The notes below the pieces were generated by a model. It was not told where the DNA came from and did not search any database. It was given only the letters and a program-made list of their open reading frames with translations. Both the position numbers and the translations under genes were made by a program. From Tridacna crocea (lineage: Eukaryota; Mollusca; Bivalvia; Cardiida; Cardiidae), in the NCBI GenBank assembly GCA_943736015.1, contig OX031068.1:33290296-33354295 (forward strand): 64,000 nt of DNA. Reading direction: 5' to 3'. Positions 1 through 63,149 of the stretch are shown piece by piece. How positions within the stretch are numbered: position 1 is the first letter of the stretch; each line of letters begins with the position of its first letter.

Positions 1-270
1 CCAGACCCCCGGTCCCCACCTCTGGATCCGCCCATGTAGACATTTGTTAATAATCTTTTTCTATAATTTATCTCTTTACATTTGACTCTTTCATTAATCA
101 ACAGACTAGCATGTATTCATTTTTCACTGGGACCAGAGAAGAAACATTTTTCTTTGCTATCAAACAAAGAATGACGCTTTCTACTATAGCAACACGTGAG
201 AGGTAAGACTTGCACGCACGAAAAGTAGTCTGTTCCATGTGCTTCACAAAATTTGTGGTGGTGTGAGTCC

Positions 271-4893: not shown

Positions 4894-4993
4894 ACGAGTT
4901 CTACAAGCAATGCACCAGGCCAAAATAGAAGAAACCATTGCACAAGCTCGAGCCTTGCGGAAGGCTATGAAGAGTGGGAAAATGGCTGCAAAG
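4894..4993 (+). CDS. ITPR-like: ITPR-like exon 1 of window: basic helical cytosolic segment
   Basis: The acceptor is ...caacacag and the donor gtaaca. The first base completes a codon from an exon outside the window; 33 codons follow (RVLQAMHQAKIEETIAQ...KMAAK) and end in phase 0. The segment is a basic amphipathic helix. It plausibly matches the region around FYDRMKVAQQEIKATV just before the RIH-associated domain of IP3 receptors, though that match is weak. No upstream exon was found in bases 1-4893, which hold only repeats. Confidence 0.75.
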
Positions 4994-9179: not shown

Positions 9180-9323
9180 AATGCTGATGATGAGGAGTTA
9201 GAGAAGATGATGCTAGAACAGATGGCTGATATGCCGGACCTAGAGTTCAAGGATGACGGGTATATTGAACTGGTTCTACGTATCTTGGGGCTTATGTGTG
9301 ACAATCAGCACTTCGGATTACAG
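9180..9323 (+). CDS. ITPR-like: ITPR-like exon 4: start of RIH-associated domain
   Basis: 48 codons, phase 0 to 0. Acceptor attgccag, donor gtataa. An acidic stretch (NADDEELEKMMLEQMAD) is followed by YIELVLRILGLMCDNQHFGLQ, which aligns with IP3R PILRFLQLLCENHNRDLQ at the start of the RIH-associated helical domain. In IP3 receptors this domain couples cytosolic ligand-binding changes to the transmembrane gate. Confidence 0.88.
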
Positions 9324-10735: not shown

Positions 10736-10885
10736 AACTATCTAAGAGAGCAGCCCGACAACATCAAGTCTGTCAATCTGGTTGGTGAATGTACAAAATT
10801 CCTCAACATTCTCTACTCAAATATCAACACTAACTCTATAGCTCTCACGACCCAGGTCTTTGAAACTTTGGTGGAGTTCACATCT
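10736..10885 (+). CDS. ITPR-like: ITPR-like exon 5: RIH-associated domain core
   Basis: 50 codons, phase 0 to 0, between a tgtttttcag acceptor and a gtaagt donor. NYLREQPDNIKSVNLVGEC and TQVFETLVEFTS align with IP3R NFLRCQNNKTNYNLVCET and NQTLESLTEYCQ. This is the best-conserved cytosolic exon in the window. The region between (TKFLNILYSNINTNS) is shorter than the glycine-rich loop of vertebrate receptors. Confidence 0.92.
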
Positions 10886-34425: not shown

Positions 34426-34544
34426 ATTTCCTGAGGCAAGAAGATCAAGTGATGGCATTTGACTATTATGCTGAAAACAGTTTGTCAATTGAGATTATAA
34501 AGAATGAGGTTTTACAGAAAATATACTTCCGTGTGAAAGACAAG
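34426..34544 (+). CDS. ITPR-like: ITPR-like exon 12
   Basis: Two bases complete an Asp codon, and 39 codons follow, ending in phase 0. Acceptor attatattttag, donor gtatac. MAFDYYAENSLSIEII matches IP3R LEFYAKHTAQIEIV; VLQKIYFRVKDK matches MEQIVFPVPSIC. In IP3 receptors this is part of the cytosolic region stacked directly above the transmembrane domain. Confidence 0.88.
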
Positions 34545-35291: not shown

Positions 35292-35461
35292 AAAGTGTTG
35301 CGAGAAGAAATCAAAGAGAAATTCAAGTATGAGGTGGACAGATCATCACCTAGCAACAAGATTCGAGACTTCATGGACTGGTCCAGTGATATTATACAAG
35401 ATATCAAATATCAGAGACGAGTCCATGCCAACCCTGTAGGACGGTTACTGGTCAATGCATG
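35292..35461 (+). CDS. ITPR-like: ITPR-like exon 13: pre-S1 linker
   Basis: 56 codons plus two bases (TG). Acceptor tttaattgcag, donor gtatgt. SNKIRDFMDWSSDIIQDIK aligns with IP3R GSKINDFFLRSEDLFNEMN, and YQRRVHANPVGRLLVNAW with WQKKLRAQPVLYWCARNM, immediately before S1. It is one of the strongest pieces of IP3R-family evidence in the window. Confidence 0.9.
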
Positions 35462-37289: not shown

Positions 37290-37442
37290 GTACAGGCCAT
37301 CCTACATTTTCAATAACGCGGGCATTGTGATCTATGTGCTTGGGGGTATCCACAATTTGTTGTCGCTTGGAATCTTTTTCAGCTACATCATATCCAACAG
37401 GCCAACCTTCCCTTCTTTTGGTGATATCACCTCCATCTGCAG
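37290..37442 (+). CDS. ITPR-like: ITPR-like exon 15: transmembrane segment S2
   Basis: Acceptor cacattacag, donor gtaaat, split codons at both ends. AGIVIYVLGGIHNLLSLGIF then FSYIISN is hydrophobic S2. RPTFPSFGDITSICR begins the cytosolic S2-S3 loop. The exon ends two bases into a codon (AG), the same phase in which exon 16 ends, so exon 16 can be skipped in frame. Confidence 0.87.
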
Positions 37443-42188: not shown

Positions 42189-42294
42189 TAAACAAGAGCA
42201 TTCAGATGACGAGGATGACAGAAGTTGGAACGAAAAGAAAGGTGAATCCCATCTTGAAGTGAAGGCCTATGGATTTAAAACAATATACTATGTG
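42189..42294 (+). CDS. ITPR-like: ITPR-like exon 17: acidic S2-S3 loop and start of S3
   Basis: Acceptor tttccatcag, donor gtgagg. One base plus 35 codons, ending in phase 0. KQEHSDDEDDRSWNEKKGES is an acidic/charged cytosolic loop. LEVKAYGFKTIYYV starts S3 and corresponds to LDVEFLYHLLYLL in IP3R. The vertebrate hydrophobic stretch NKIIFLMSFVGN is replaced by the charged sequence, which looks more RyR-like. Confidence 0.83.
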
Positions 42295-43562: not shown

Positions 43563-43686
43563 TTTTTCCTTGCTTGCTCAATTGCTGGTACAATCACAGA
43601 TGGGTATTTCTTCGCATTCCATTTATTACATATAACAGAGCTCAACCAGTTATTGAAACGAGTCATCCAAGCAGTCACAACAAATG
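43563..43686 (+). CDS. ITPR-like: ITPR-like exon 18: S3 end, S4 and S4-S5 linker
   Basis: A poly-T tract precedes the ctag acceptor; donor gtatgt. 41 codons plus one base. FFLACSIAGTITDGYFFAF is hydrophobic. HLLHITELNQLLKRVIQAV matches RyR HLLDIAMGFKTLRTILSSV and IP3R [20 protein letters not shown], and TTNG| opens the conserved NGKS/NGRS junction with S5. The single trailing G pairs with GA at the start of either exon 19a or 19b. Confidence 0.9.
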
Positions 43687-47183: not shown

Positions 47184-47362
47184 GAAAGTCATTAATGTTG
47201 GTAGCCCTGCTTGGTTTAGCCATATTCTACATCTACTCTCTTATCATCTTTGCTTTTTATCGTGAACGGATGTGGAAAAGGAGCAATGGTCGACATTGTA
47301 CAACAATATATGAGTGCTTTGTCTCTGTGATGCACCACGGACTTGTAGAGGGTCCCTATACG
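47184..47362 (+). CDS. ITPR-like: ITPR-like exon 19a: S5, pore helix and filter, alternative copy A
   Basis: Acceptor ctataattacag, donor gtaaga; 179 nt, entering in phase 1 and leaving in phase 0. S5 is KSLMLVALLGLAIFYIYSLI; the luminal loop is very short (FYRERMWKRSNGRHC); the pore helix TTIYECFVSVMHHGLVEG aligns with IP3R [20 protein letters not shown]. The exon ends GPYT where known receptors have GGGVGD. The vertebrate glycosylated luminal insertion is absent. Copy A is richer in charge (RERMWKR, E before CF) than copy B. Confidence 0.9.
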
Positions 47363-47669
47363 GTAAGAAAAACCTTAAAAGGGGTCACCTGTTGCTTGAG
47401 GTCACTGGAAGAAAATGTTACAATATTGACCAAAGGCTGATCTGGGTTCAAGCCACAGATGGATATATCTTAAAAGTTAGGATACTGTGAAATGATTCAT
47501 ACAGTGTGTGCTTGAGTTTTATGACTGAAATAATAGTAATGGCAACTCATAGAAGTTTGGCATTGTTTTCTGGTTGCTTTAGCAGGAACTAGATCGTCTG
47601 GTGTTTCTATGAGAAAATTTTACTTCAATTGAAACATTACTTCCTGCATCATTATTACATCAAGCATTT
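47363..47669. other. Start of the intron between alternative exons 19a and 19b
   Basis: No extra exon or obvious docking-site pairing was seen by eye. Confidence 0.35.
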
Positions 47670-47892
47670 TTAAACCCTTTAACAAACAACAAAAATCTGG
47701 ATAAGTCTGATGTGAACGCACTTGCAGGCAACAAGATAATGTAGCTCAAATGGAAATGGGGTCTGAAAAGGAGTAGAAAACAATGTGGGAAAATGGAGAA
47801 AGTGCCTGTTACCAGCATTTTATCCTTTTCCCACATTGTTTTGAAAACTGATCTTTCTCAGGGGTCATTAAAGTATTGTGGCAAAGAGTTAA
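47670..47892 (-). repeat. TTAA-hp element between exons 19a and 19b
   Basis: TTAAACCCTTTAACAAAC start; palindrome diverged at GTGCCTGTTACCAGC; GGCAAAGAGTTAA end. Confidence 0.78.
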
Positions 47893-48427
47893 AGTATCTA
47901 ATTGGAAAAGAATCAATGACTTAAAATTTATTGAATACCCTAGTAAATGTTCTTTCCAAAGGAGAAATAGCATTTTTATCGTTTATGTTGAAAAGTTGGT
48001 CTTGCCTTAAAAGAAGGTATTCTGTGACTTGGACTTATGTGGTGCTGTGGAATTGTTTACTGTTGTTCGGGTAGGGGCCTGTTTGTTTAACATGTTTTGT
48101 GGTGGTCTTTGTTTGCCTTTGTTGTTCACAGTGTGCTGTTATTCTGATAGGATCTGTTATCTCCTGTGATAGTTTGATGTTTCTATAATACCAATTAGTG
48201 TTTTGTCAAATTCAAATGACATGGCAGAGGTTGGGATGTTATTGGTCTGAGTGTTTTAACAACCTCTATGTGTTTTTGTTTGTGGTATTAGGTGATGATC
48301 AGCAAGTTCAAAGTGTTTAAGTATATGGATGTAGATATGCAGTTAGTTTTGAAGCATTCCTGTCTATCTCTATATTACAACATAAACTCTGGCAAAACGG
48401 TTGACTTATATTTACGAGACACATTAA
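47893..48427. other. Intron stretch between exons 19a and 19b
   Basis: A T/G-rich run (48050-48290) ends in a splice-acceptor-like ggtattag at 48293, followed by a 52-codon open frame running into a MITE. No donor or homology was found. Confidence 0.35.
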
Positions 48428-48834
48428 TTAACTCTTTACCTCATAAAAAATAATGACGGACTTGTCCAAATTAAAAGCATTTGTGAGCATCGAAATAAAT
48501 AAGGTTCGAATGGTAACCAGCGTTTTTCCTCTTTTCCAAAAAAGTTTTCAAAAGCCTTCTTCTTATCCCTTTACCAGACGACAAAATTTTAGCTATGTCT
48601 AAATTGAAAGCATTAAATTTTGCAGACGACAATTTAAGTGTGGCTCAAATGGTACAATTATTTATTGATTAGGTAGAAAACATTGTGGGAAAAGGAGAAA
48701 ATGCTGGTTACCAGCACTTTCTCCTTTTCCCACAATGTTTTCAAAAGGCTTCTTTTCCAGGGGCGACAAAAAAAGGGATTGAGTGGTAATGGGTTAAGGA
48801 TCTTATAACTAGGGAATGTGTGGTAAAGGGTTAA
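48428..48834 (-). repeat. TTAA-hp element interrupted by a second copy
   Basis: The outer left part ends AAAGCCTTCTTC at 48562; the outer right part resumes GGATCTTATAACTAGGG and ends GGTAAAGGGTTAA. Confidence 0.82.
48563..48797 (-). repeat. TTAA-hp element nested in an older copy
   Basis: TTATCCCTTTACCAGACGAC to GGTAATGGGTTAA; palindrome with one mismatch. Confidence 0.88.
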
Positions 48835-48879
48835 ATGTTGCTAAGATTGTGAAATGTGCATGTCTTTAGAATGTTGTAA

Positions 48880-48998
48880 TAGATTGTCGGTTTGTGGAAC
48901 ACAAGAGAAAATCCTGATAATCAGCATGTTGTCCTTTCCTCTTCTTTTCAAAGGCTTTCTTCAAGACCAATCATAGATTGAATTTGTCTGATAAATAG
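48880..48998 (-). repeat. TTAA-hp fragment
   Basis: AGAGAAAATCCTGATAATCAG core only, followed by a diverged right end meeting TTAA 48999. Confidence 0.5.
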
Positions 48999-49165
48999 TT
49001 AACTCTTTACCAAAGGACAAAACTTTAGACTGGTCCAAATTCAAAGCATCTGCAACCAATAAATTAAATCTTGTGAATATGTTGATTTCTGACTTTGATG
49101 ACAATGTTTTCTATAGGCTTCTTTTTCAGGGTTGTTAAAAGTCGAGATTGTGTGGTAAAGAGTTC
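48999..49165 (-). repeat. TTAA-hp element without palindrome
   Basis: TTAACTCTTTACCAAAGGAC; hairpin deleted between GACTTTGAT and GACAATGTTTTC; GGTAAAGAGTTCA end. Confidence 0.8.
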
Positions 49166-49312
49166 AAATGCTAAATGTACCAGTGTAGAAAATACAGGAG
49201 TTGAATGCAAACATTTCCTGTATAGTCTATCTTTGCTCTGTTTAGGGATGGTGTTAGATGCCAGCATAATGATAATAATTTCACAAGATTTCTTCGTTTT
49301 CAGGTAAGACAG

Positions 49313-49812
49313 ATATGTTGTTTTGTAAACAAGATGAGATGTATCATAACAACCAGTAGATGAATCACAATGAGACCGTGTCAAGCATTATTTTATTAAC
49401 AAACATACAAACTTTTTTCTTTGATTTTAGAGCACTAACCTTGTACCAGCTGTCAAAAAATAAGATGTATCAAAGGCCTTACTGAATAAATTAACATTGC
49501 TTTTATGATCTTAAATAGCAGAGATGCCTATAATTTTTGCGGATTCAACCAAAAACATGTTGTTTTGTAACCAAGATGAGATGTTTCATAACAACCAATA
49601 GGTGAATTGCATTGAGACAGTGTCAAGCGTTATTTTATTAACAAACATACAGACTTTTTTCTTTAATTTTAGAGCACCAACCTTGGACCAGCTGTCAAAA
49701 AACATAATGTATCTAAGGTCATACTAAACAAATTTGATGAACCATTAACATTGCTTTTATAATTTCAAATAGCTAAAGTTGCCAATAAGTCTTGCAGATC
49801 CAACCAAAAATA
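49313..49812. repeat. Direct tandem duplication, ~241-bp period
   Basis: TTGTTTTGTAAACAAGATGAG at 49318 recurs as TTGTTTTGTAACCAAGATGAG at 49559. GTGTCAAGC...TTATTTTATTAACAAAC and ACCAGCTGTCAAAAAA are in both halves. Moderate divergence. Confidence 0.8.
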
Positions 49813-49924
49813 TCATGCTTAAATTGACAAAAGAAAACCAAGGAAGGATAGGTACTAGGAGACGCTGTTTGATTATAACTAACAATTGCTCCTTTTCATT
49901 CAATAGTTTTCAAAAGCTGTCTGA

Positions 49925-50100
49925 GTACAATTGAGTCATGCTGCGCAGGCTGACCTGGGTTGATACTGTTTGCTCTATGAAAAGTTTTCTGATGTCTAAG
50001 GTTCAATCTAGCTCATGGTGCCATCGTTTACTATGATTATGTGGTGATTATCCTAGTATAACGCAGCATCCAGATGCATGGAACCTTCTTTTCACAGAGC
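49925..50100. repeat. Dispersed repeat family copy
   Basis: GCTGCGCAGGCTGACCTGGG and following resemble the right part of 8480-8640. Confidence 0.4.
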
Positions 50101-50174
50101 ATGGTTCATATAAATTGGTAATGTATAGACTTCTGCTATCTCTCTACCGTGTATGTATGTGTATTACATTGCAG

Positions 50175-50353
50175 GAAAATCTCTGATGTTGGTTGCGTTA
50201 CTCGGACTGGCCATATTTTACATTTATGCACTCATCTTGTTTGCATTTTATCGAGAGTGGATGTGGGCCTCATCTAATGGTCGACATTGTAAAACCATTT
50301 ACCAGTGTTTCGTGTCCATTTTACATCATGGACTCGTGGAAGGGCCTTATACG
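50175..50353 (+). CDS. ITPR-like: ITPR-like exon 19b: S5, pore helix and filter, alternative copy B
   Basis: Acceptor attacattgcag, donor gtgaat; same 179-nt length and same phases as 19a. About 51 of 60 residues are identical to 19a. Changes cluster in the luminal loop and pore helix: REW-MWASS for RER-MWKRS, CKTIYQCF for CTTIYECF, VSIL for VSVM. HHGLVEGPYT is unchanged. Including both copies shifts the frame, so they should be mutually exclusive. Preserved frame and splice sites argue that both are functional. Confidence 0.88.
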
Positions 50354-50691: not shown

Positions 50692-51207
50692 AACACTGGG
50701 AAAAGGAGAAATTGCTCGAGCAATTTCTCCTTTTCCAACAGTGTTTTCAAAAACTTTTACTGCAGACACGTAAAAACCAGGGCTTGTTTGGGAAAGGGTT
50801 GATCTTTTTTCCTGACAATATTTCTGAAAGCCTGTAACGTCAGTTTGTTGAAACTCAGAATGGTATGCTAAATGGTTGTCACTGTAGTATAGCTCCTTGA
50901 TGAACAGATATTTAAGGCATGGAGCAAAACTCTTTATTTTCATATATTTGAAATGGTTAACTCATTAATAGTATGGCTGTTATTATGCCCTGCCCAAGGC
51001 GGAGGGATATATAGTTTTTGCATTGTCCGTCCATCCACCTGTCTGTCTGTGACTGTCCAGGACAATATCTCAAATACTATTGTAGATGATTTGTTTAAAC
51101 TTTGTGTGTACAATAACCTATTCCGCTGACAAACTTTTTTTTTCTTGATTGGATAAAAAATGGCCAATTGGGAGCAATTTTGAGCTACATGTATGTGGTC
51201 TGATGAA
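50692..51207. repeat. Near-identical duplication, copy 1
   Basis: About 516 bp repeated at 51401-51917 with roughly seven differences. It contains the 3' half of a subtype-C TTAA-hp element (to 50802) and a GCCCAAGGCGGAGGGATATA/GTCCGTCCATC element from 50983. Confidence 0.88.
50983..51207. repeat. CCCAAGGCGGAGGG / GTCCGTCC element
   Basis: Short head, GATATATAGTTTTTGCATTG, GTCCGTCCATCCACC, AATATCTCAAATACTATTG, AATGGCCAATTGGGAGC. A second copy is at 51693-51917; relatives at 32205 and 57327. Confidence 0.7.
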
Positions 51208-51511: not shown

Positions 51512-51917
51512 TCTGTTTTCCTGACAATATTTCTGAAAGCCTGTAACGTCAGTTTATTGAAACTCAGAATGGTATGCTAAATGGTTGTCACTGTAGTATA
51601 GCTCCTTGATGAACAGATATTTAAGGCATGGAGCAAAACTCTTTATTTTCATATATTTGAAATGGTTAACTCATTAATTGTATGGCTGTTATTATGCCCT
51701 GCCCAAGGCGGAGGGATATATAGTTTTTGCATTGTCCGTCCATCCACCTGTCTGTCTGTGACTGTCCAGGACAATATCTCAAATACTATTGTAGATGATT
51801 TGTTTAAACTTTATGTGTACAATAACCTATTCCGCTGACAAACTTTTTTTTTTCTTGATTGGATAAAAAATGGCCAATTGGGAGCAATTTTGAGCTACAT
51901 GTATGTGGTCTGATGAA
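51401..51917. repeat. Near-identical duplication, copy 2
   Basis: Begins inside the complete subtype-C MITE (51292-51511) and ends TGGTCTGATGAA. Offset from copy 1 is 709-710 bp. Confidence 0.88.
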
Positions 51918-57687: not shown

Positions 57688-57837
57688 CAATTTGAGAACC
57701 AACTGACAGATGACTTTGACATTGCCATAGGTGTTACAGTGTTTGATGTGTCCTTCTTCATCATTATTACAACAATTGGTCTGAACATCATCTTTGGTAT
57801 CATTGTCGATACCTTCTCACAGCTCAGAGATTCAAAG
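57688..57837 (+). CDS. ITPR-like: ITPR-like exon 20: S6 and gate
   Basis: Acceptor ttctcaacag, donor gtaaga; 50 codons, phase 0 to 0. QFENQLTDDFDIAIG is the post-filter luminal stretch, rich in acidic residues. VFDVSFFIIITTIGLNIIFG then IIVDTFSQLRDSK is S6, aligning with IP3R YDLLFFFMVIIIVLNLIFG and VIIDTFADLRSEK. Spacing from HGL to the S6 (V/Y)FD differs from vertebrate IP3R by about one residue, so no missing filter exon is needed. Confidence 0.92.
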
Positions 57838-58269: not shown

Positions 58270-58347
58270 TGGGAAATTGACAAAGATATGCAAAACAACT
58301 GTTTTATTTGTAGCAGAGAGAGTTATGATTTTGAAAGACAAGGAGGG
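58270..58347 (+). CDS. ITPR-like: ITPR-like exon 21: zinc-binding linker, CxxC half
   Basis: Acceptor ttcactttcag, donor gtaagc; 26 codons, phase 0 to 0. WEIDKDMQNNCFICSRESYD aligns with IP3R [20 protein letters not shown]. The two cysteines of the C-terminal C2H2-type zinc site (CFIC) are present. FERQGG ends the exon and joins the histidine half in exon 22. Confidence 0.92.
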
Positions 58348-59294: not shown

Positions 59295-59414
59295 GGCTTC
59301 TTGAGGCACGTGAAGCACGAACACAATCAATGGGCTTATCTGTTCTTCTTTATCCATCTCGATGAGACCCGGCCAAATGATTACTCCGCTTTGGAACTCT
59401 TCGTCTATAAATTA
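59295..59414 (+). CDS. ITPR-like: ITPR-like exon 22: zinc-binding linker, histidine half
   Basis: Acceptor atcatctag, donor gtaagt; 40 codons, phase 0 to 0. GFLRHVKHEHNQWAYLFFF matches IP3R FEEHIKEEHNMWHYLCF, keeping both zinc-ligand histidines (H-x4-H). IHLDETRPNDYSALELFVYKL matches [20 protein letters not shown], with the Gly of the TGPESY turn lost. Confidence 0.92.
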
Positions 59415-60584: not shown

Positions 60585-60719
60585 CTGATGGTAAACAACT
60601 TCGATTTTTTTCCACTAAACCGTGCCTTGTCGCTGGAGAATGAGGAAGACAGTGACGAACAGAGAATGGAACATTTACAACAGCAAATAGATTATCTCGT
60701 CACTAAAATGAAGGAACAG
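60585..60719 (+). CDS. ITPR-like: ITPR-like exon 23: C-terminal acidic coiled coil
   Basis: Acceptor ttctgcag, donor gtaaag; 45 codons, phase 0 to 0. VNNFDFFPLNRALSL corresponds to IP3R RNLDWFPRMRAMSL. It is followed by an acidic run (ENEEDSDE) and a heptad-like helix (MEHLQQQIDYLVTKMKEQ), the tetramerisation coiled coil of the family. A donor rather than a stop shows that at least one more coding exon follows. Confidence 0.9.
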
Positions 60720-61164: not shown

Positions 61165-63149
61165 TTTGAAGATGGGTCTGTGAAGTTGGCTCAACGCTCA
61201 GTAATCGACATTCAGCTCAACACCAGCCTTGTTGAGCCAGCTTGACATTCCAGCTCAACCGCCAGCTCAACAGCAAAAATACATATACATGTCAAAGTCC
61301 GTTTGATTATACCTATCAACATTCCAGCTCAACCGCCAGTTCAACAGTAAGAATACTTGTACATATGTTTCAATCAATGGCCGTTGAGCAAGCTCGACGT
61401 TCCAGCTCAATCACCAGTTCAACAGCAAAAATGCATATATATTCAAAATCAAAGTCCGTTGAACCAGCTCGACATTCCAGCTCAACCGCAAGCTCAATAG
61501 TAAAATACTTATACACATGTGTCAGTTTCCGTTGAGCAAGCTCGACGTTCCAGCTCAATCACCAGCTCAACAGTAAAAATACATATATATGTCAAAATCA
61601 ACGTCTGTTGAACCAGCTCGGCATTTCAGCTCAACCACCAGCTCAACAGTAAAAATACCTATACATATGCTTCAATCAATATCCGTTGGGCCAGCCCGAC
61701 ATTCGAGCTCACCCACCAGCTCAACAGTAAAAAATACTTATACATAATTATATTTTATCAATGTCTGTTGAGCCAGCTCGACATTCAAGTTCAACCACCA
61801 GCTCAACAGTAAAAATACTTAAACATATGTTTCGATCAATGTCCGGTGTGCCAGCTCGACATTTCAGCTAAACAGCAAAAATACGTGTATATGTCAAAAT
61901 CAAAGTCCGTTGAGCCAGCTCAACATTCCAGCTCAACCACCAGCTCAACAGATTTTGATATATATGTATTTTTGTTGTTCAGCTGGAATGTCGAGCTGGT
62001 GCAATGGACTTTGATTTTGATATAAATATGTGTTTTTGCAGTTGATCTGGCTGTTGAGCGAGAATGTCGAGCTGGCTCAACGGACATTGATCGAAGCATA
62101 TGTATAACCTTTTTGTACTATTGAGCTGGCGATTGAGCTGGAATATCTAGCTGGCTCAATGGACATTGATCGAATCGTATGTGAAAGATTTTTATTACTG
62201 TTGAGCGAGCGGTTGAGCTGGAATATCGAGCTGGCTTAAACGACATGGATCTAGTATTTTTGCTGTCGAACTGGCTCAATGGACTTTGAGTCTGAAATGT
62301 CTGTCTATTTTTCCTATTGAGCTGGTGGTTGATCTGGAATGTCGAGCTGGCTCAATGGACTTTGATTTTGCCATATGTGAATTATGTATTTTTTCTGTTG
62401 AGCTGGAATATCGAGCTTGCTTATCGGACATTGATCGAAATATATATATTTATGTGTTTTTACTGTTGAGCTGACGGTTGAGATGGAATGTCAAGCTGGC
62501 TCAACGGACTTTGATTTTAACACATATGTGTATTTTTGCTGTTGAGCTGGCTGTTGCCCGAATGTTGAGCTGGTGCAACGGATATTGATCGAAGCATATG
62601 TATAAGTAATTTACTTTTGAGCAGGCGGTTGAGCTGGAATGTCGAACTGGCTAAACGGACTTTGATTTCGACATATGTATGTTTTTTTGCTGTTGAGCTG
62701 GAATGTCGAACTGGCTCAACGGACATTGATCCAAACGTATATGTATAAATATTTTTACTGTTGAGCTAGCGGTTGAGATGGAATGTCGAGCTGTCTCAAC
62801 GGACTTTGATTTTGACATATATATATGTATTTTTGCTGTTGAGCTGTTGGTTTGAGCTGGAATGTCGAGCTGGCTCAATGGACATTGATCGAAACATATG
62901 TATAAGTATTTTCACTGTTGAGCTGGTGGTTGAGCTGGAATGTCGAGCTGGCTCAACGGACGTGTATCTAGTAGTTTTGCTGTTGAGCTAGTGGTTGAAC
63001 TGGAATATCGAGCTGGCTCAACATACTTTGATTTTGGCATGTATATGTATTTATGCTGTTGAGCTGGAATCTCGAGCTGGTTCAACAAGGCTTGTGTTGA
63101 GCTGAATGTGGATTTCTGAGCGTTGAGCCTACTTCACGGACCCTTCAAA
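61165..63149. mobile_element. Foldback-type element built of inverted tandem-repeat arms, ~2 kb
   Basis: Outer inverted repeats TTTGAAGATGGGTCTGTGAA / TTCACGGACCCTTCAAA and CTCAACGCTCAG. The left arm (to about 61960) is a tandem array of units with GAGCCAGCTCGACATTCCAG and CTCAACAGTAAAAATAC, 60-100 bp each. The right arm is the same array in reverse complement, but longer. All reading frames here are repeat artefacts. The layout recalls Drosophila Foldback elements. Confidence 0.85.

What the first reader, a model, noticed from the sequence alone, without database searches (positions are those of the whole stretch)
47184..50353. Mutually exclusive S5/pore exons (19a, 19b)
Two 179-nt exons 2.8 kb apart have the same acceptor phase (1) and donor phase (0). 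Since 179 is not a multiple of 3, joining 19a to 19b shifts the frame, which enforces exclusive use. About 51 of 60 residues match; the differences change charge in the luminal turret and pore helix (RERMWKRS vs REWMWASS, TTIYECF vs KTIYQCF). Splicing would therefore choose between two ion-conduction variants of one channel, something I do not know to be described for IP3 receptors.
Basis: partly seen in the sequence, partly recalled or inferred. Interest (0 to 1): 0.92.

Follow-up and report, generated by a model that had tools for sequence, protein, structure and literature searches.

The report
Alternative pore exons in clam IP3R-like channel
A clam calcium-release-channel gene carries two interchangeable versions of the exon that builds its pore, with a reading frame that allows only one at a time, and a second such exon pair in its regulatory part, so splicing probably makes different channels from one gene.

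Summary
Exons 19a (47184-47362) and 19b (50175-50353) are both 179 nt, acceptor phase 1, donor phase 0, with GT-AG sites. They match at 51 of 60 residues, although 37 of 59 third codon positions differ. Splicing in both, or neither, gives a stop within four codons. Best explanation: a functional mutually exclusive pair coding for S5, turret, pore helix and filter entry.

(2) Two Mya arenaria proteins from a contig of the same length carry different exon 19s but 163 of 163 identical shared downstream residues. (3) The gene is not a canonical IP3 receptor: it belongs to an IP3R-B-like group lacking the GGGxG selectivity filter, so a conduction switch cannot be assumed.

No RNA evidence was available, and 60 columns do not settle how old the 19a/19b split is. 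Pore exons of this kind are published for NALCN and Cav3; my searches found none for IP3R/RyR pores.

The parts
47184..47362 (+). exon 19a, 179 nt: S5, luminal turret (RERMWKRSNGRHC), pore helix, start of filter region
   Evidence: own-genome search; P0001 match E 1.6e-26
50175..50353 (+). exon 19b, 179 nt: same segment, turret REWMWASSNGRHC, pore helix KTIYQCFVSILHH
   Evidence: own-genome search; P0001 match E 1.7e-28
43563..43686 (+). exon 18 (...NQLLKRVIQAVTTN + one base), common upstream exon
   Evidence: gene model; spliced reading; P0001 match
57688..57837 (+). exon 20 (QFENQLTDDFD... S6 ...DTFSQLRDSK), common downstream exon
58270..58347 (+). exon with the CFIC motif (zinc-finger-like linker)
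59295..59414 (+). C-terminal exon (HVKHEHNQW...)
60585..60719 (+). C-terminal coiled-coil-like exon
42189..42294 (+). exon before exon 18 (acidic loop, start of S3)
37290..37442 (+). transmembrane exon (YVLGGIHNLLSLGIFFSYIISNRPTFPSF)
35292..35461 (+). exon before the membrane domain (KVLREEIKEKFKYEVDRSSPSNKIRDF)
34426..34544 (+). exon (FLRQEDQVMAFDYYAENSLSIEIIKN...)
   Evidence: the script printed the end one base short, the end is set here by the AAG|gtatac junction
9180..9323 (+). RIH_assoc exon 1
10736..10885 (+). RIH_assoc exon 2
105..202 (+). second duplicated exon, copy b, 98 nt (TSMYSFFTGTREETFFFAIKQRMTLSTIATRE); its partner copy a lies outside the window at window coordinates -3883 to -3786 (G000:C13:33286412-33286509)
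4894..4993 (+). common exon downstream of the second pair (RVLQAMHQAKIEETIAQ...)

Best explanation
19a and 19b are a functional, mutually exclusive exon pair in an IP3R-B-like intracellular channel gene of a bivalve. Each mature mRNA joins exon 18 to one of them and then to exon 20, so each subunit gets one of two S5-turret-pore-helix segments. The frame polices the choice: joining 19a to 19b reads ...GPYT-ENL-stop, and skipping both reads ...VTTN-AI-stop, so both products should be degraded or truncated. Shown here: anatomy, phases, stops, constraint, an alternative exon 19 in Mya. Inferred: that both are spliced, that the choice is regulated, and that the more positively charged 19a turret alters how ions meet the luminal mouth of the pore. 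A second pair (98 nt each, acceptor phase 0, donor phase 2) in the regulatory helical region follows the same logic for double inclusion, so up to four isoforms are possible.
For: Equal length, same phases, GT-AG sites; stops on co-inclusion and on skipping. Near-saturated third positions with 50/59 identical residues; in a drift simulation, copies with a mean of 34 of 59 third-position differences kept a mean of 9 and at most 17 of 59 residues, 400 runs. Splice sites of both copies lie within the range of the 14 exons scored with a generic recalled matrix, 19b with the weaker donor. One colinear gene: the Mercenaria orthologue P0001 maps in order, 2381 of 2601 residues covered, residues 1-122 not found in the stretch searched. 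Among 59 exon-derived queries only the two pairs recur; three other extra hits were 15-24 residues at E 0.03-0.04. Mya arenaria P0002 and P0122, on a contig of the same length, share 163/163 downstream residues but differ in exon 19. Second pair: copy a groups with Mya isoform X3, support 96/94. Pore-exon switching is published for NALCN (PMC3557258, passages) and Cav3 (PMC9694082, abstract).
Against: No transcript of this species was seen; the three protein searches returned no protein identical to the spliced window sequence. P0122 is a rough gene model (odd N-terminus, CFIC exon missing), and its exon 19 does not clearly pair with window 19a: support is low, and neither {19a, Mya alt, Dreissena P0004, LGN_P0158} (p-AU 0.32) nor {Mya alt, Mya main} (0.158) is rejected. 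A sister relation of 19a and 19b is only just disfavoured (p-AU 0.038, 60 columns). For the second pair the tree has 33 columns, Mya is a long branch, and sisterhood of the two copies is not rejected (p-AU 0.097). Other full-length relatives show one exon 19 each, but clustering at 90% identity hides isoforms. Skipping of the second pair does not meet a stop within the exons read.
Confidence: 0.82

Rival explanations
1. Only one copy is spliced in this animal; the other is a relic or a recently silenced exon.
For: No RNA evidence for either. 19a carries residues not seen in most of the 18 other exon 19s compared: R at column 29 otherwise only in 2 of 18 rows; 19b has a weaker donor score (2.5 against 5.4).
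Against: Both frames are open, both have intact splice sites, and residue conservation is far above what drift gives at this synonymous divergence. Silencing that is very recent cannot be excluded.
Confidence: 0.1
2. Assembly artefact or allelic (haplotype) duplication, or a partial tandem gene copy.
For: Bivalve assemblies often hold uncollapsed haplotypes (recalled).
Against: 29.6% nucleotide difference, at saturated third positions, is far too much for alleles; only this exon is repeated, neighbours are single copy.
Confidence: 0.02
3. The pair works mainly as an on/off switch: regulated co-inclusion or skipping makes stop-containing transcripts that lower channel level, and the residue differences are near neutral.
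For: Both unproductive forms meet a stop at once.
Against: A poison exon need not keep a full S5-pore coding frame; both copies do.
Confidence: 0.05

Closest known systems
NALCN exons 15a/15b and 31a/31b (PMC3557258, passages seen)
   Same: Tandem mutually exclusive exons covering the pore loop of one channel gene, found in molluscs among others; alternative pores from one gene.
   Different: Different channel family; there the exons swap a selectivity-filter E for K. Here the exon ends at the filter entry and the channel lacks a canonical filter.
Lymnaea Cav3 exons 12a/12b (PMC9694082, abstract and outline seen)
   Same: Alternative exons for the S5-P turret; a lysine in one version changes ion preference. 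19a likewise adds basic residues to the turret.
   Different: Voltage-gated plasma-membrane channel, tested by electrophysiology; the present pair is in an IP3R-family gene and untested.
Insect RyR mutually exclusive exons in SPRY2 (PMC6026295 and PMC4204029, passages seen)
   Same: Mutually exclusive exons in the same superfamily of release channels.
   Different: Cytosolic SPRY2 domain, not the pore; PMC6026295 states that such exons were not sought in insect IP3Rs.
IP3RB subfamily (leech, PMC7992859, passages seen)
   Same: Invertebrate IP3R subfamily reported absent from vertebrates, fly and nematode; relatives from annelids and an acorn worm appear in my searches.
   Different: That paper, in the passages seen, describes gene copies and neuron-specific expression, not alternative pore exons; that the window gene is an IP3RB is my inference, no tree with the paper's sequences was built.

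Membership tests
Mutually exclusive exon pair | neighbouring homologous exons of like length with the same flanking phases | tested here: met
   179/179 nt, phase 1/0
Mutually exclusive exon pair | intact canonical splice sites on both copies | tested here: met
Mutually exclusive exon pair | co-inclusion unproductive | tested here: met
   ENL-stop; skipping gives AI-stop
Mutually exclusive exon pair | conserved in other species | tested here: inconclusive
   an alternative exon 19 in Mya with identical downstream residues; orthology of the alternative copies unresolved
Mutually exclusive exon pair | each used in transcripts, never both | not testable with these tools
   no RNA reads of this species available
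IP3 receptor family | IP3R/RyR domain set | tested here: met
   RIH_assoc and Ion_trans in joined window exons; orthologues P0001-P0003 also carry PF01365, PF02815, PF08709
IP3 receptor family | closer to IP3R than to RyR | tested here: met
   ITPR3 1.4e-14, best RyR 9.5e-10; the 14 PDB sequences at E <= 1e-50 for orthologue P0001 are all IP3Rs
canonical IP3 receptor | GGGxG selectivity filter (motif as stated in PMC7939385, passages) | tested here: not met
   window reads HHGLVEGPYT-QFENQLTDDFD; 3 of 151 S6-bearing proteins fetched have GGGxG[DE]
canonical IP3 receptor | IP3-binding residues | tested here: inconclusive
   only the alignment of Mercenaria P0001 with ITPR2 was seen: RQKLMR kept, the stretch with Arg-269 changed; residue numbers recalled
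Pore-switch exons (NALCN/Cav3 type) | alternative exon covers turret or pore loop | tested here: met
   AF2 model of relative P0121: exon 19 = residues 103-162, S5 helix to 128, pore helix 144-157
Pore-switch exons (NALCN/Cav3 type) | measured change in permeation | not testable with these tools
   needs electrophysiology

The most novel reading that the evidence does not exclude
A filterless branch of the IP3 receptor family uses splicing to set its pore: the two exons give channels with different ion preference or conductance (19a turret strongly basic, 19b nearly neutral), and a second exon pair in the regulatory region lets the animal pair each pore with one of two regulatory surfaces. It would be the first pore-altering splice choice in the IP3R/RyR superfamily, in a pore that must select ions without GGGxG.
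Probability: 0.35. Interest if true: 0.87.

Novelty: new variant of a known kind. Interest (0 to 1): 0.72.

Why it matters
IP3 receptors are textbook single-pore channels whose known splicing is in cytosolic parts (recalled; the papers seen name cytosolic sites). A spliced pore would add the IP3R superfamily to NALCN and Cav3 as channels whose pore is chosen by exclusive exons, and offers natural sequence pairs for asking how a member without GGGxG conducts. The IP3RB group is described as understudied (PMC7992859, passages).

Tried and rejected
Third copy of exon 19 in the window: tblastn with six exon-19 variants; in the part of the output that I saw (it was cut) only 47183 and 50174 stood out, all else was at E 0.37 or worse. 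A frame-correcting exon between 19a and 19b: the best chain of my rough gene finder has none, and two S5-pore segments in tandem would not fit the channel's topology (inference). RyR membership: rejected on scores. An old shared 19a/19b pair in Mya and the window species: not shown, trees too weak. RNA pairing between introns as the exclusion mechanism: not tested. A canonical GGGVGD receptor elsewhere in this genome: search did not complete. The AF2 model is of relative P0121, not of the window protein, mean pLDDT 71.6, pTM 0.46; its best PDB match is an IP3R3 (E 1.3e-9) but with TM 0.40 and rmsd 14.6, so it serves only to place helices.

Papers: seen as passages: PMC6026295, PMC4204029, PMC7992859, PMC3557258, PMC7939385; abstract and outline: PMC9694082; all other papers only as search listings. 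The statement that no spliced IP3R/RyR pore was found rests on searches of an open-licence library.

Full report
What is there. The two exons are exactly as described: 47184-47362 and 50175-50353, each 179 nt, acceptor phase 1, donor phase 0, 2,812 nt apart. They agree at 126 of 179 bases and 50 of 59 complete codons; differences by codon position are 12/4/37. In a simple drift simulation of 19b, copies with a mean of 34 of 59 third-position differences kept a mean of 9.4 and at most 17 of 59 residues in 400 runs. So neither copy has been free of constraint for long. In the whole assembly (1.05 Gb) the DNA of 19a finds only itself and 19b; the protein of 19b also finds two diverged paralogue exons on C10 at 36% and 40%.

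The gene. A rough gene model from codon use and splice sites, extended by hand, gives the membrane domain: exon 18 ends ...NQLLKRVIQAVTTN plus one base, exon 20 begins QFENQL and carries S6, then a CFIC exon and a C-terminal tail. The Mercenaria protein P0001 (87% identical over the 204 residues searched) maps colinearly from 86.7 kb upstream of the window to 60719, 2381 of 2601 residues covered at E <= 1e-3; its residues 1-122 were not found in the stretch searched. So this is one long gene, not a stray fragment. The closest named relatives are Mercenaria 87%, Mya 86%, Mactra 85%, so the source is a bivalve; the species is not given.

Exclusivity. Exon 18-19a-19b reads ...GPYT ENL stop; exon 18-20 reads ...VTTN AI stop; 18-19a-20 and 18-19b-20 are open.

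A second pair. The spliced comparison showed that one other part of P0001, residues 1700-1737, hits twice: at window coordinates -3883 to -3786 (outside the window) and at 105-202. Both copies are 98 nt, acceptor phase 0, donor phase 2, 25 of 32 residues and 67 of 98 bases identical, differences 7/4/20 by codon position. Joining both meets a stop inside copy b; skipping both does not meet one in the exons read. Copy a (KDRFSLSQVATRER) groups with the exon in Mya isoform X3 (KDKFNLAQVAMRER), support 96/94, whereas Mercenaria isoform X2, Mactra and Dreissena carry b-like exons; the tree has only 33 columns, Mya is a long branch, and sisterhood of the two window copies is not rejected (p-AU 0.097). 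A scan with 59 exon-derived queries found no further pair; three other extra hits were short and weak.

Other species. Mya arenaria supplies the best outside evidence. P0122 is a crude model, so this shows two alternative exons at what looks like one locus, not two mRNAs. On 60 columns the Mya alternative exon groups with Dreissena P0004 and LGN_P0158 (bootstrap 88; not starred in the second tree), not with window 19a. Sisterhood of 19a and 19b is weakly disfavoured (p-AU 0.038), and both copies are closer to ENA_P0154 (87% and 90%) than to each other (85%), which hints that the split predates this species. The six exon-sized ORFs found by the last search show that single-exon pieces exist in other assemblies but gave no second pair. 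Most full-length relatives show one exon 19; the database is clustered at 90%, so isoforms that differ only here are hidden.

Where the differences lie. In the AF2 model of relative P0121 (pLDDT 71.6, pTM 0.46) exon 19 spans residues 103-162: end of the S5 helix (to 128), turret (129-143), pore helix (144-157) and the start of the filter region. Of the nine a/b differences two fall in S5, four in the turret and three in the pore helix. The two cysteines of the exon are invariant in the 46 aligned sequences.

Not a canonical IP3R. The joined window exons score best with IP3Rs (1.4e-14) and less with RyRs (9.5e-10), yet the filter motif GGGxG, which PMC7939385 describes as conserved in all IP3R subtypes and as giving dead pores when its glycines are mutated (passages), is absent: HHGLVEGPYT-QFENQL. 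Of 151 fetched proteins with the S6 motif, 3 have GGGxG[DE]. The group looks like the IP3RB subfamily of PMC7992859 (passages), which is my inference. So what flows through this pore is open, and 'two ion-conduction variants' remains a hypothesis.

Known parallels. NALCN has mutually exclusive pore exons in molluscs and other phyla (PMC3557258, passages), and Lymnaea Cav3 turret exons 12a/12b shift Ca/Na preference through one lysine (PMC9694082, abstract). The present pair works like these if expressed. Insect RyR has an exclusive pair in SPRY2, and insect IP3Rs were not examined for such exons (PMC6026295, passages). My searches listed no paper on a spliced IP3R or RyR pore.

Verdict. Real, functional-looking mutually exclusive pore exons in an IP3R-B-like gene, with a second pair in the same gene; expression and electrical effect unproven. 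Confidence 0.82 for exclusive functional exons, 0.35 for the bold conduction reading.

Noticed in passing
window 105-202 and window coordinates -3883 to -3786 (L029): Second duplicated exon pair in the same gene, 98 nt each, in the region upstream of the RIH_assoc domain; copy a resembles the exon in a Mya isoform, copy b those in Mercenaria, Mactra and Dreissena.
   Followed up: yes
HHGLVEGPYT in 19a/19b and QFENQLTDDFD at 57688: The GGGxG selectivity filter of IP3Rs is missing in this gene and in 148 of 151 S6-bearing relatives fetched.
   Followed up: partly
P0001 (Mercenaria orthologue), residues about 280-300 and 486-500: Against ITPR2 the IP3-binding core is partly kept (RQKLMR) and partly changed where the Arg-269 stretch lies; IP3 gating is uncertain.
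   Followed up: no
whole window: A palindromic repeat containing ACATTGTGGGAAAAGGAGAAA has 54 + and 56 - strand matches with up to 4 mismatches; probably a miniature transposon family.
   Followed up: no
50893-51129 and 51602-51838: Two copies of a 78-residue reading frame that differ by one residue, in the intron after 19b.
   Followed up: no
61236-63133: Stretch of repetitive reading frames on both strands (VEPARHSSSTASS-like), probably a tandem array.
   Followed up: no
P0001/P0013 and P0004/P0039: Mercenaria and Dreissena each have two related proteins on a contig of the same length with differing S6 exons, so linked paralogues of this gene.
   Followed up: no
G000:C10:16184923-16185087 and 57052997-57053161: Two paralogous pore exons, each found once, 36% and 40% identical to 19b.
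   Followed up: no
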